In this document: positions 15,963 through 39,928 of the stretch, in pieces | Layout: every line of letters starts with the position of its first letter | How positions within the stretch are numbered: position 1 is the stretch's first letter | The notes under the pieces: model-generated | Databases searched by the model: none | What the model saw: only the letters and a program-made list of their open reading frames with translations | Told to the model about the DNA's origin: nothing | Translations under genes and position numbers: made by a program | Assembly (NCBI RefSeq): GCF_003387475.1 | Contig: NZ_QUNO01000014.1 | Coordinates: 62,001 to 126,000 of the forward strand | Direction of reading: 5' to 3' | Length of the DNA: 64,000 bases | DNA from: Kutzneria buriramensis | GTDB taxonomy: Bacteria > Actinomycetota > Actinomycetes > Mycobacteriales > Pseudonocardiaceae

Positions 15963-16865
15963 GCTGCCCACCAAGGGATCTGCTGGATGACCGGCCGCAT
16001 CACCCGGGGTCGGCTTCCGCCGTCGCCGGTTTCAGCGGGTCGCCGGCCGCTGCGCGCTGCCTGGTTGTCTCCGGTGAATCATGGCCGAACGCTAGGGGGC
16101 AATCCGTGGCCCGTCAACGGGCGCACCTGGCCGGTTCGAGGTTTCGGCGGCCGAATCACGTCATTGGCGCGGCAGCGCCGACAACGCCGAGTGATGCTCG
16201 GTCGGGGCGGCGCTCGGCCGGGTTCCCGCGCCATGGCGGAATGTGGCCACGACCGCCCGCCGCGTCGAGGGAAGGCCTGCCACAGTCATTCGGTTGGTGA
16301 CTCCCGGGAGTGACACGAAGATCCTTGTGGAGGGAGGGAAACCGCGGGCAGGGTGACTCGGGACTCGGGACTCGGGACTCGGGACTCAGGACCCGGGACC
16401 CGGGACTCGGGACTCGGGACGCGGAACTCGGGACTCGGGACTCGGGACTCGGGACTCGGGCCCGGCCGCGGCGCACGCCAGTTCATCCTTTGTGGACGTT
16501 CGGCCATCTCCGCGACGTGACCGTCCACACCGCCCCGTGACTGCTTCGGGCCGCCGACTCACTCCACCGACGAGGTGGCCACCGGTATGGCCTCTGGGAA
16601 TGCGCTGCCGACCAGTGGAACCTGGGACGCGCGAAAGGAGGTGTTCGGCTGGCGGCGACACGAGGCATCTCGGGAACAGGAACGAGAATTCGGGCGGCAC
16701 GGCTGTCCAATGAGTACGGGGCCAGGTGCATGGCCCCCTTTTGCGGGCCGGTCGCCGACAACAGACTGTGGGCGTGGATCTTTATCGTGGCGAGGTCGCG
16801 CGTCGAAACACGACCTCGGTTTGCCGGGCAGAGCAACGGATTCGTCTTCTGGGCAGGGTGGCCGC
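15963..16865. other. Divergent intergenic region upstream of the PKS
   Basis: These 903 bases lie between the LuxR-type regulator and the PKS-oxoamine synthase. They contain the GACTCGG heptad array (16355-16459). Reading frames run through from 16575 into the PKS, but codon use is poor before the GTG at 16866 and the KS homology begins only there. I see no separate gene. Confidence 0.55.
16355..16459. repeat. Tandem heptad array, GACTCGG, about 15 copies
   Basis: Fifteen contiguous 7-base units run from 16355. Most are exactly GACTCGG; variants include GACTCAG (16383), GACCCGG (16390, 16397), GACGCGG (16418) and AACTCGG (16425). The array sits about 400 bases before the PKS start and 390 bases before the divergent regulator start. 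Its regularity suggests slippage growth. SARP boxes are also heptamers but normally repeat every 11 bases, so equating the two would be a guess. Confidence 0.85.
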
Positions 16866-37196: not shown

Positions 37197-38408
37197 TCAG
37201 TGATCCGGGCGGTGCAAGACGAGTGCGGAGTTCATGCCGCCGTACCCCCGGGCGAGCACGAGCGCGGTGCGCAGCTCGGCTCGGCGCGGGGCGCCGACGA
37301 CGAAGTCGAGGTCGTCGATCGGCTCGGCGAGCGCCGGGATCGGCGGGATGATCCCGTGATCGAGGCTGAGGACGGCGGCCGCGACGTCGAGCGCGGAGGC
37401 GCTGGCGTACGCCCGGCCGAACCCGGCCTTGGGCGCGGTCACCGGGACCTTCGTGCCGAACAGCGACTTGATCACGGTGGCCTCGGCGCGGTCGGCCGTG
37501 GGGATGGCGGTCGCGTCGGCGAAGACGACGTCGATGTCCTCCGGCTGGCAGCGGGCCGCCGTGAGGGCCTTGCGGCACGCCATCTCCAGCCCCTCGCCCG
37601 ACGGGTCGAAGGCGGCGACCGCGCTGAAGGTCGCGCCGTGCCCGGCGATCACGGCCCTGGGCCGACTGCCCCGCTCGGCGGCGTCGGCCGCCGACTCCAC
37701 CACGAACATCGCGGCTCCCTCGGCCGGCGCGTATCCGCATGCGCCGTGAGAGAACGGGAGATAGGCGGCGTCGGGATCGGCCGACTCGGTGAGCATTCGC
37801 GCGAAGTACTGCGGCGCCAGCGCGTAGGGGCACAGTGGCGCCTCGGCCGCGCCCGCGATCATGATCCGGGCGCCGCGTCGGAGGGCGCGTCGGGCGTGCG
37901 CCAGCGCGTCGATACCGCCGGCCTCGTCGGTGACGATGACCCCGCACGGCCCCTTCATGGTGTCGCGGACCGACACCTGCCCGGTCGTCGCCGCGTGCAA
38001 CGGCGCGATCGACTGGTACGGGCTGAGGTGGTGCGGGCCGTCGCGCCACAGCCTGCCGAGCCCACGCTGCCCGGACTCGGCGCCGCCGACACAGCTGCTG
38101 GTGATCACGCCGGCGGCGAAGGGATTGAGCGCGGGCGGCGAGAACAACGCGTCGGCCATGGCGAGGTCGGCGGCGGCGAGACCGAACTGGGTGGCCCGGT
38201 CGGCCTGCACCACGTAATGGCGCTCGATCAGCTCGTCGGCGTCGAAGCCGACCTCGCCGGCGACGGTGACCGGGGTGCCCTCGGGATCGAACCGGGTGAT
38301 CGGCGCCAACAGGTTCCGGCCCGCCGAGGTGGCCTGCCAGAACTCCGTCGCGCCGATGCCGCCCGGCGCTATCGGGCCGACCCCGGTGATCACGGCCGTG
38401 ACGGTCAC
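37197..38408 (-). CDS. Type II PKS ketosynthase beta / chain length factor
   Basis: This 403-residue thiolase-fold protein pairs with KS-alpha. The active-site Cys position is replaced by Glu162 in IVTDEAGGIDA, where chain length factors usually have Gln in an EQAGG context, so it cannot condense but may help decarboxylation or set the cavity. The N-terminus TAVITGVGPIAPGG and C-terminus GYGGMNSALVL fit the family. The GTG at 38408 has AGGAAGG five bases upstream and overlaps the stop of the last micro-ORF (GTGA). In most clusters KS-alpha and CLF overlap directly; here three repeat-encoded micro-ORFs lie between them. CLF largely sets chain length, which I cannot predict. Confidence 0.9.
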   Translation of the reverse strand: MTVTAVITGVGPIAPGGIGATEFWQATSAGRNLLAPITRFDPEGTPVTVAGEVGFDADELIERHYVVQADRATQFGLAAADLAMADALFSPPALNPFAAGVITSSCVGGAESGQRGLGRLWRDGPHHLSPYQSIAPLHAATTGQVSVRDTMKGPCGVIVTDEAGGIDALAHARRALRRGARIMIAGAAEAPLCPYALAPQYFARMLTESADPDAAYLPFSHGACGYAPAEGAAMFVVESAADAAERGSRPRAVIAGHGATFSAVAAFDPSGEGLEMACRKALTAARCQPEDIDVVFADATAIPTADRAEATVIKSLFGTKVPVTAPKAGFGRAYASASALDVAAAVLSLDHGIIPPIPALAEPIDDLDFVVGAPRRAELRTALVLARGYGGMNSALVLHRPDH

Positions 38409-38491
38409 GGACCTTCCTCGCTGACGCTCGGAGCACGAAGGTCCGCGACCAAGGTCGCAGTGCTGGATGGTTCCCTCGCAAGCTCGGTCAC
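38405..38491 (-). CDS. Repeat-encoded micro-ORF 3 (28 codons), coupled to CLF
   Basis: Third copy. It starts with a GTG overlapping the stop of copy 2 and ends at a TGA that overlaps the CLF start at 38408. It contains GGTCGC changed to TTGGTCGC upstream and GCGAGG instead of GTGAGG before the CLF GTG. The frame has no stop or shift, so coupling from KS-alpha to CLF is preserved through all three copies. Confidence 0.45.
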   Translation of the reverse strand: MTELAREPSSTATLVADLRAPSVSEEGP

Positions 38492-38574
38492 GGACCTTCC
38501 TCACTGACGCTCGGAGCACGAAGGTCCGCGACCGAGGTCGCAGTGCTGGATGGTTCCCTCGCAAGCTCGGTCAC
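38488..38574 (-). CDS. Repeat-encoded micro-ORF 2 (28 codons)
   Basis: Second copy, starting VTELAREPSSTATS and ending SVSEEGP. Both ends overlap its neighbours by GTGA. It differs from copy 1 at residue 4 (Leu for Pro). It is likely only a relay for ribosomes moving from KS-alpha to CLF. Confidence 0.45.
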   Translation of the reverse strand: MTELAREPSSTATSVADLRAPSVSEEGP

Positions 38575-38657
38575 GGACCTTCCTCACTGACGCTCGGAGC
38601 ACGAAGGTCCGCGACCGAGGTCGCAGTGCTGGATGGTTCCCTCGCAGGCTCGGTCAC
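38571..38657 (-). CDS. Repeat-encoded micro-ORF 1 (28 codons), coupled to KS-alpha
   Basis: The GTG at 38657 overlaps the KS-alpha stop (GTGA). The frame encodes 28 residues beginning VTEPAREPSSTATS and ending SVSEEGP, then a TGA that overlaps the next GTG. GAGGAAGG lies just before that next start. No domain is recognisable in such a short Ser/Ala/Glu-rich peptide. Translation is inferred from start/stop geometry; the peptide may have no function of its own. Confidence 0.45.
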   Translation of the reverse strand: MTEPAREPSSTATSVADLRAPSVSEEGP

Positions 38658-39928
38658 GGCCGACTCGTTTCCCCGCGGCCCGAATCGGGGCGGCGCAAGG
38701 CCATCACGGACTGGAACCCGCCGAACCCGCTGGCCAGCGACAGCGCGACGCCGACGCGGTGCTCGCGGGCGATGTCGGGAACGTAGTCCAGATCGCACTC
38801 GGGATCGGCCACGGTGAGGTTGGCCGTCGGCGGCACCACGCCACGGTCGACGGCCAGTGCGGCCGCGACCAGCTCGATCGCCCCGCTGGCGCCGAGCGCG
38901 TGCCCGACCATCGACTTGATCGAGCTCATGGGCGCCGAGTACGCCCACTGCCCGAGAGCCAGCTTGACCGCGTTGGTCTCGTGCCGGTCGTTCTGGCGGG
39001 TTCCGGTGCCGTTCGCGCTGATGTAGTCGATCTCCGTGGGGCCCAGGCGCGCCTGGTTGAGCACCTGGGTGATGGCCACCGCGAGCACCCGGCCGTCGGT
39101 GGTCAACCCGGTCATGTGGTGCGCGCTGCTCAGCGTGGCGTAGCCGGCGACCTCGCACAGCACGGTCGCGCCTCGCCGGATCGCGTGCCGGAGCTCCTCG
39201 AGTACCAGGACGGCGGCTCCCTCACCGAGCACGAAGCCGTCGCGTTCCCGGTCGAACGGCCGGCAGGAGTGCTCGGGATCGTCGTTGCGTGACGACGTCA
39301 CCCCGATCGCGTCGAAGCGCCCCACGGTCGCGGGGGATATCGGCGCCTCGGCGCCGCCGGTCACCACGACGTCGGCATCGCCGTCCAGGATGAGCTGGGC
39401 GGCGTAGCCGATCGCGTCGATCCCGGCCGTGCAGCCGCTCGACACGGTGTGCACCGGGCCGCGGGCGCCGCAGAGCCGGGCGATCTCCGCGCCGAGCATG
39501 CTGGGCGTCCACGCCAGACGCAGATGCGGCGAGCCGTACTGGTGGTCCAGTTCCCATTTCGAGCCACCGTCGCTCATCACCACGTAGTTCTGCTCCAGCA
39601 AGGCCGCCGAACCCAGCGCGGTGCCCATCACCACGCCGACCCGCCACTCGTCCTCCTCGACCACGTTGAGCCCCGAACCGTGCAGCGCCTCGGTGGTGGC
39701 GGTGGCGGCGAACTGGAGGTAGCGGTCCAGCCAGCCGGTGTTCATGCCGTGCGCGGCCTGGTGCAGGTCGCACTCCGCCGCGATGCGTGACCGGAACCCG
39801 GTGGCGTCGAACAGGGTGATCGGCCGGGTCATCGGCCGCCCGGAGGTCAGCAGTTCCCAGAACGCGGGAATTCCGACGCCGCCGGGAGCGGTCACCCCCA
39901 TGCCGGTGATCACTACTCGCCTTGTCAC
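38654..39928 (-). CDS. Type II PKS ketosynthase alpha with Asn for the first catalytic His
   Basis: This 424-residue condensing enzyme has Cys166 in SSGCTAGIDA and His343 in MVGHALGAS. The first catalytic His position is Asn306 (ISANGTGTRQNDRHET; codon AAC), where aromatic PKS ketosynthases read AHGSGT or AHGTGT. The spacing matches the C169/H309/H346 triad of actinorhodin KS with a constant offset of three, so the alignment is secure. The rest is typical (RVVITGMGVTAPGG, CRPFDRERDGFVLGEGA). Loss of this His should weaken malonyl decarboxylation. The GTG at 39928 is preceded by an in-frame-terminated short ORF overlapping by GTGA. The 241 bases upstream to 40169 probably hold the operon promoter. 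Confidence 0.92.
   Translation of the reverse strand: MTRRVVITGMGVTAPGGVGIPAFWELLTSGRPMTRPITLFDATGFRSRIAAECDLHQAAHGMNTGWLDRYLQFAATATTEALHGSGLNVVEEDEWRVGVVMGTALGSAALLEQNYVVMSDGGSKWELDHQYGSPHLRLAWTPSMLGAEIARLCGARGPVHTVSSGCTAGIDAIGYAAQLILDGDADVVVTGGAEAPISPATVGRFDAIGVTSSRNDDPEHSCRPFDRERDGFVLGEGAAVLVLEELRHAIRRGATVLCEVAGYATLSSAHHMTGLTTDGRVLAVAITQVLNQARLGPTEIDYISANGTGTRQNDRHETNAVKLALGQWAYSAPMSSIKSMVGHALGASGAIELVAAALAVDRGVVPPTANLTVADPECDLDYVPDIAREHRVGVALSLASGFGGFQSVMALRRPDSGRGETSRP

What the first reader, a model, noticed from the sequence alone, without database searches (positions are those of the whole stretch)
38402..38657. Triplicated 83-bp unit makes a chain of four GTGA start/stop overlaps from KS-alpha to CLF
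KS-alpha and CLF are normally translated in a strict pair through one overlap. Here the KS-alpha TGA overlaps a GTG that opens a 28-codon ORF; its TGA overlaps the GTG of an identical next copy, then a third, whose TGA overlaps the CLF GTG. The unit is 83 bases, exactly 87 minus the 4-base overlap, so copy number can change without breaking coupling. Each unit carries GAGGAAGG before the next GTG and two possible hairpins. This could tune the KS-alpha:CLF ratio by repeat number, a tandem-repeat rheostat, or be a mobile REP-like element adapted to sit in GTGA junctions.
Basis: seen in the sequence. Interest (0 to 1): 0.82.

Follow-up and report, generated by a model that had tools for sequence, protein, structure and literature searches.

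The report
Start-codon-seeking repeat, three tandem copies
Between two polyketide genes of a Kutzneria bacterium sit three head-to-tail copies of a small mobile-looking repeat that inserts exactly at gene start codons and brings its own start signal, so the downstream gene can still be read; it resembles the MIRU repeats of mycobacteria but has its own sequence and occurs in many other actinobacteria.

Summary
In detail: three 87-nt units overlapping by GTGA link KS-alpha to CLF. It is not peculiar to this gene pair. The unit belongs to a dispersed family (62 model matches in this Kutzneria genome) that also occurs in many other actinobacterial genera. Copies sit at NTGA start codons, often where the upstream stop overlaps. 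All 24 tested sites are empty in at least one of three congeners. The KS-alpha/CLF junction holds 3, 1 and 0 copies in three species. The host NTGA mostly stays on the left; the element brings its own Shine-Dalgarno sequence and a new NTGA on the right. The micro-ORF frame is kept in 132 of 144 scorable copies. Both ends show compensatory base-pairing. At the left end the host start codon's first base covaries with element position 22, reminiscent of guide/cleavage-site pairing in IS200/IS605, though no Y1 transposase was found in this genome. The architecture is that of mycobacterial MIRUs, already reported to insert at start codons; sequence kinship to them is weak. Verdict: a MIRU-like mobile element, new variant of a known kind.

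The parts
38654..39928 (-). KS-alpha (ketosynthase), upstream gene; its TGA lies in the first GTGA
   Evidence: PF00109, PF02801
38571..38657 (-). element copy 1 (87 nt, 28-codon micro-ORF)
38488..38574 (-). element copy 2
38405..38491 (-). element copy 3
38636..38657 (-). left-end imperfect palindrome of copy 1 (GTGA pairs with the internal tetranucleotide at 38636-38639)
   Evidence: covariation in relatives; position
38553..38574 (-). left-end palindrome of copy 2
   Evidence: as copy 1
38470..38491 (-). left-end palindrome of copy 3
   Evidence: as copy 1
38575..38610 (-). right-end hairpin of copy 1 (GGACCTTC...GAAGGTCC), holds the Shine-Dalgarno sequence
   Evidence: position
38492..38527 (-). 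right-end hairpin of copy 2
38409..38444 (-). right-end hairpin of copy 3
38578..38585 (-). GAGGAAGG (Shine-Dalgarno) of copy 1
38495..38502 (-). GAGGAAGG of copy 2
38412..38419 (-). GAGGAAGG of copy 3
37197..38408 (-). CLF (chain length factor), downstream gene; its GTG is the right-end GTG of copy 3

Best explanation
The array is three tandem copies of a short non-autonomous mobile element that inserts directly 3' of an NTGA start codon. SHOWN: it is dispersed; insertions are precise; the sites are empty in relatives; the host tetranucleotide is mostly retained on the left; the element carries a Shine-Dalgarno sequence and a terminal NTGA; its micro-ORF frame is conserved; both ends carry base-paired structures with compensatory changes. 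INFERRED: a ribosome ending KS-alpha reinitiates at the first micro-ORF, and so on through three micro-ORFs to CLF, so insertion costs little; each extra copy adds one reinitiation step and so probably lowers CLF somewhat. INFERRED: movement uses folded single-stranded DNA, with the target chosen by pairing between NTGA and an internal tetranucleotide (IS200/IS605-like), driven by an enzyme not identified. Tandem copies probably arise by duplication after the first insertion.
For: Dispersal: 52 matches, 62 model matches. Empty sites: 24 of the 33 arrays were searched in three congeners; 70 of 72 junctions were found, 51 empty and 19 filled, each of the 24 empty in at least one congener; base-level views. 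KS-alpha/CLF: 3 (G000), 1 (G002), 0 (G001), with 88.6 to 91.8% identical KS-alpha and CLF proteins. Junctions: in G000 28 of 38 loci end at an NTGA opening a coding-like ORF with spacing 2 mod 3; 23 of 38 have both stop and start, against 13 of 736 background NTGA sites (Fisher p 4e-25). The downstream ORFs look like real genes: 19 of 20 scanned have Pfam matches. Frame: 132 of 144. Structure: 92.3% of cells paired, 58 two-sided changes against 18.6 in shuffles and at most 26 in slid controls. Host base 1/position 22 in 150 family genomes: GTGA+C 292, GTGA+T 23, ATGA+C/T 180 in all, of which 150 listed: 138 T, 12 C (sums).
Against: No transposase is identified; Y1_Tnp gave no match in G000, G001 and G006, which are rich in copies. 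Ten of 38 G000 loci fail the canonical criterion, some because degenerate. The pairing rule has exceptions: 7 of 12 A-C and 13 of 23 G-T copies are not clearly inner array copies. At L007, L009, L335 and L338 the congeners' empty sites carry the other start base, so the pairing may be adjusted after insertion; 4 of 12 informative empty sites match the right, not the left, tetranucleotide. The right-end guide signal is weak (position -31, p 2e-4 before correction for 64 positions and 4 bases; position -1 is nearly as strong). Arrays with spacing 0 mod 3 exist (11 of 48 tandem pairs). The left helix in alignment A1 is biased because the scan pattern fixed most of those bases. Counts are not phylogenetically independent. 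There are no expression data.
Confidence: 0.8

Rival explanations
1. Rheostat: the copy number at KS-alpha/CLF is selected to tune the KS-alpha:CLF ratio.
For: Copy number differs between species, 3/1/0. In M. tuberculosis, longer repeat regions upstream of fpg1 went with higher mRNA levels (PMC2734929, passages read).
Against: Arrays of similar size sit at unrelated genes (4, 5 and 3 copies at L016, L042, L027). G001 has the same junction with no copy.
Confidence: 0.12
2. RNA device: the hairpins evolved to hide each start codon and Shine-Dalgarno sequence until the upstream ribosome opens them, and copies are kept because they tighten coupling. The pairing of NTGA with the internal tetranucleotide is then RNA structure, not target recognition.
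For: Right-end hairpins are more stable than native joined junctions (mean z -1.16 against -0.15, 56 clusters, p 4e-4) and include the Shine-Dalgarno region; base pairs are conserved by compensation; the frame is conserved; left bases that differ from the congeners' site match the internal base.
Against: The predicted gain in Shine-Dalgarno occlusion is small (unpaired 0.37 against 0.44, p 0.045). Sporadic presence and empty sites fit a mobile element better than a kept device. Not exclusive of mobility.
Confidence: 0.25
3. A REP/BIME element mobilised by a TnpA_REP (RAYT) transposase.
For: Tetranucleotide next to an imperfect hairpin with conserved mismatches; E. coli REPs have both (PMC8266576, passages).
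Against: NTGA instead of GTAG; located at start codons; no Y1_Tnp match in G000.
Confidence: 0.05
4. The 28-aa peptides themselves are functional leader or signal peptides.
For: The N-terminal V-[ST]-E-L-A is common, though the search patterns favour it.
Against: Positions 5/18 and 1/22 covary as base pairs; interiors and last residues differ freely between subfamilies.
Confidence: 0.04
5. Assembly artefact.
For: G000 is a 65-contig draft; three near-identical 83-bp units could be miscounted.
Against: One copy in G002 and arrays in the single-contig genomes G001 and G006.
Confidence: 0.03

Closest known systems
MIRU (mycobacterial interspersed repetitive unit)
   Same: 40-100 bp units at 41 loci of M. 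tuberculosis H37Rv, 12 polymorphic in copy number (PMC2734929, passages read). Described as apparently mobile, inserting at start codons, with an ORF coupled at -4 nt (PMC12548453, passage read). A class I MIRU of 77 nt forms a whole 5' UTR (PMC4128351, passage read); 77 is the commonest spacing here.
   Different: Different left end and interior; found here in Kutzneria and many non-mycobacterial genera; left-end palindrome that includes the host NTGA. Sequence kinship is only weak.
IS200/IS605 family (IS608)
   Same: Insertion 3' of a tetranucleotide that stays on the left; right end closes with its own tetranucleotide; subterminal hairpins; guide tetranucleotides pairing with the cleavage sites (PMC5934647, passages read).
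   Different: Only about 80 nt, no tnpA inside; no Y1 transposase match in this genome; the left internal tetranucleotide lies 3' of the small hairpin, not 5'.
REP/BIME with TnpA_REP
   Same: Short, dispersed, hairpin next to a conserved tetranucleotide (PMC8266576, passages).
   Different: NTGA not GTAG; start-codon location; no Y1 transposase match in G000.
Translational coupling by stop/start overlap
   Same: -4 nt GTGA/ATGA overlap with a Shine-Dalgarno sequence.
   Different: Here a repeat supplies and multiplies the overlap.

Membership tests
MIRU | Unit of about 40-100 bp dispersed at tens of loci | tested here: met
   83 bp; 62 model matches in G000; 38 loci by the left-end pattern
MIRU | Inserted at a start codon with an ORF coupled at -4 nt | tested here: met
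   28 of 38 loci canonical; empty sites; coupling itself not measured
MIRU | Tandem copy number polymorphic | tested here: met
   between species only, by insert length: 3/0/1 at L088, 4/0/1/0 at L016, 5/1/1/0 at L042 for G000/G001/G002(/G005); strains not tested
MIRU | Sequence homology to mycobacterial MIRU | tested here: inconclusive
   Model R1 on 12 loci bearing a MIRU motif recalled from memory: best E 0.0038; 8 of 13 weak hits fall on the motif
MIRU | Host is a mycobacterium | tested here: not met
   host genus is Kutzneria (contig lengths); the exact left-end motif was absent from the 14 genomes of family f8, which I take to be mycobacterial because the recalled MIRU motif occurs only in a genus of that family
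IS200/IS605 | Y1 (HUH) transposase | tested here: not met
   PF01797: no match in G000; 3 of 21 genomes match, the congener G002 only partially
IS200/IS605 | Insertion 3' of a retained tetranucleotide | tested here: met
   left = empty-site tetranucleotide in 8 of 12 informative empty sites, right in 4 of 12
IS200/IS605 | Guide/cleavage-site base pairing at both ends | tested here: inconclusive
   left: strong covariation; right: weak; no biochemistry
REP/TnpA_REP | GTAG (GT[AG]G) before the hairpin | tested here: not met
   GTGA 138, ATGA 6 of 144; the retrieval patterns required NTGA
REP/TnpA_REP | Associated TnpA_REP gene | tested here: not met
Translational coupling | Downstream translation depends on upstream translation | not testable with these tools
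   needs reporters or ribosome profiling

The most novel reading that the evidence does not exclude
A family of start-codon-seeking mobile elements whose target is chosen by base pairing: an internal tetranucleotide (GAAC/GCAC/TCAC for GTGA, GAAT/GCAT/TCAT for ATGA) recognises the host NTGA, and the element restores an open start by ending in its own Shine-Dalgarno sequence and NTGA. MIRUs would be the mycobacterial branch of this class.
Probability: 0.35. Interest if true: 0.85.

Novelty: new variant of a known kind. Interest (0 to 1): 0.62.

Why it matters
MIRUs are widely used to type tuberculosis strains, yet I recall no established account of how they move or why they sit at start codons. 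A similar family with many subfamilies, clean empty sites in congeners and covarying ends in Kutzneria and other actinomycetes makes both questions testable. It also shows how an insertion can be tolerated between linked genes, here a ketosynthase pair, and it suggests start-codon insertion modules as tools.

Tried and rejected
RAYT/Y1 transposase as the mover: searched, no match in G000. Rfam: nothing at gathering scores in the window. Phylum sample of 396 genomes: the exact left-end motif in 3, G000 included; that draw holds few near relatives and says little about spread. A right-end guide: only suggestive. A count of 90 of 109 was mended to 79, because 11 copies have no separate micro-ORF. 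Literature: eight searches for such elements outside mycobacteria or for MIRU insertion listed the J Bacteriol review and MIRU papers; none of the listed titles or abstract starts describes such an element in Kutzneria or another non-mycobacterial genus. The K. albida genome paper (PMC4210621, passages) mentions repeats only as assembly gaps and island borders. The library holds only openly licensed papers. Supply et al. 1997 (MIRU, 'DTGA' sites) is recalled, seen only as a reference.

Full report
OBSERVATION. The minus strand of the window reads KS-alpha, three 87-nt units, CLF, with four GTGA stop/start overlaps. The period is 83 and the units differ at 1 to 3 bases. Pfam finds a ketosynthase pair, an ACP and a polyketide cyclase.

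A DISPERSED FAMILY. The window lies in a genome of 11.97 Mb in 65 contigs (G000). The unit has 52 matches there at E<=10; the left-end pattern with at most one mismatch has 51 places against 0 for the reversed control; a covariance model built from 48 relatives has 62 matches at E<=0.1. Of six congeners, five had 14 to 53 matches at E<=0.01 and the sixth, a 4.7-Mb draft, none. In an even draw of 396 genomes of the phylum only 3 had the exact motif, so it is widespread but patchy.

WHERE IT SITS. By the left-end pattern G000 has 38 loci with 51 copies. In 28 the right end is an NTGA opening a coding-like ORF with spacing 2 mod 3; 2 have NTGA in another frame, 4 another start, 4 none by this criterion (third-position GC). 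In 30 of 38 a coding-like ORF ends at the left TGA, in 23 both hold, against 13 of 736 background NTGA sites in the same DNA. Twenty downstream ORFs were scanned: 19 have Pfam matches, several from residues 3-6, among them four response regulators, DapB, a Der/EngA-like GTPase and type II dehydroquinase. In named genomes, 123 copies were found, 14 dropped at locus edges; of 109, 79 have a micro-ORF chain ending at an NTGA that opens a coding-like ORF (40 of them with a coding-like upstream ORF too), and in 23 the left-end GTG itself opens a longer ORF, 11 of these coding-like. So the common denominator is the start codon; the stop overlap comes with operons.

EMPTY SITES. Joined flanks of 24 of 33 arrays were searched in three congeners: of 72 possible junctions 70 were found, 51 empty and 19 filled. 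Some 'empty' ones carry small indels (up to -21 and +13, both at L007). Filled sites measure 68, 74, 76, 77, 83, 92, 154 and 166 nt by coordinates; at base level the 76s are 77, and the 92 is one copy beside a diverged flank. KS-alpha/CLF has 3 copies in G000, 1 in G002, 0 in G001; no ortholog was found in G005. At L027 G000 has three 77-type copies and G002 166 nt, two 83-type copies, which looks like independent use of one site. Where left and right tetranucleotides differ, empty sites match the left in 8 of 12 informative cases and the right in 4 of 12. So the host tetranucleotide mostly stays on the left and the downstream start codon is replaced (L026 GTG to ATG; L097, L332 ATG to GTG).

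FRAME. Of 211 distinct copies, 144 have a coding-like ORF opening at NTGA 50-115 nt downstream; the distance is 2 mod 3 in 132, of which 126 fall in the classes 68, 71, 74, 77 (85 copies), 80 and 83 and 6 elsewhere; 6 and 6 are in the other frames. The other 67 copies were not counted. Nine further copies located by the model and not in its alignment all have lengths divisible by 3; a tenth, weak match (82 nt, no NTGA) does not look like a copy. Against a simple rule, arrays with spacing 75 or 78 exist; over 48 distinct tandem pairs held, 36 are 2 mod 3, 11 are 0, 1 is 1. In one such array (L308) units fused in frame form one 104-codon ORF that still ends in a GTGA; the gene behind it was not judged.

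STRUCTURE. The left end, GTGAGCGAGCTTGCGAGCGAAC, is an imperfect palindrome with tandem G-A mismatches. Positions 5/18 are GC 100, CG 41, TG 1, AT 1, AC 1 in 144 copies; positions 6/17 are CG 138, TG 1 and unpaired 5. The right end is a hairpin whose arms differ between subfamilies yet pair; it is more stable than native joined junctions. On 48 representatives (of 56 clusters; the two shortest length classes left out) 92.3% of cells pair, with 58 two-sided changes against 18.6 in shuffles; slid controls reach at most 48.1% and 26. Most rows of that alignment came from a scan that fixed bases 1-23, so its left helix is biased; the right-end helix (columns 50-53 with 85-89) is not, and has 48 two-sided changes in four pairs, with 81% of cells paired.

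HOST BASE AND ELEMENT BASE. With later loci added, some chosen because discordant, 106 copies give G-C 78, A-T 17, G-T 10, A-C 1. In 150 family genomes: GTGA+C 292, GTGA+T 23, ATGA+C/T 180, of which 150 are listed, 138 T and 12 C (sums; T and C counted by eye). I fetched the 12 listed A-C and 23 G-T copies: 5 and 9 are clear or probable inner array copies, whose left NTGA is the previous copy's right end; one G-T match looked like no element; 7 and 13 remain. Of the nine further copies, 8 pair, two of them with the partner shifted by an indel (by eye); one sits at CTGA and has G at position 22. This is what guide/target pairing predicts (compare IS608, PMC5934647, passages read). But at L007, L009, L335 and L338 congeners carry the other start base, so later adjustment is possible. 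The right end shows only a weak sign, with an unrelated position nearly as strong.

MOVER. No Y1 transposase match in G000; 3 of 21 genomes match the family at all. The enzyme is unknown, and other transposase families were not surveyed.

KNOWN KIND. A 2025 review states that MIRUs appear mobile and insert at start codons with -4 nt coupling (PMC12548453, passage read). A pattern I recall for MIRU occurred in 15 of 298 genomes of the order, all in one genus of 77, and in several of the 12 loci read it runs up to an NTG start. The covariance model finds these loci only weakly: best E 0.0038, 8 of 13 weak hits on the motif. So it works like a MIRU; common descent is possible, not shown.

MECHANISM AT THIS LOCUS (inferred). 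A ribosome finishing KS-alpha reinitiates at the overlapping GTG, repeats this through three micro-ORFs, and reaches CLF; each unit has its own Shine-Dalgarno sequence inside a hairpin that the translating ribosome would open. Extra copies probably lower CLF a little. Selection for a particular KS-alpha:CLF ratio is possible and untested.

Noticed in passing
window 16355-16460: A 7-bp tandem repeat GACTCGG, 15.1 copies, score 177.
   Followed up: no
L010, second copy (G000:C4:553266-553347, strand -): The last copy has spacing 78, so its micro-ORF runs in frame into the downstream gene (by eye IspF-like, not scanned): an element turned into an N-terminal extension.
   Followed up: partly
L093, L051, L060: The left-end GTG of the element opens an ORF of 300 codons or more (L093 looks MiaA-like by eye), as if the element donated a new N-terminus.
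   Followed up: no
L308 (G006:C1:222335-222990): Array of four ATGA/GTGA units; spacing 78 fuses them into one 104-codon repeat ORF that still ends in a GTGA.
   Followed up: partly
L027 and L268: Same response-regulator junction holds three 77-type copies in G000 and 166 nt of 83-type copies in G002.
   Followed up: partly
L247-L258: The recalled MIRU motif is limited to one genus of 77 in the order sample; tandem periods of about 51-55 in some genomes.
   Followed up: partly
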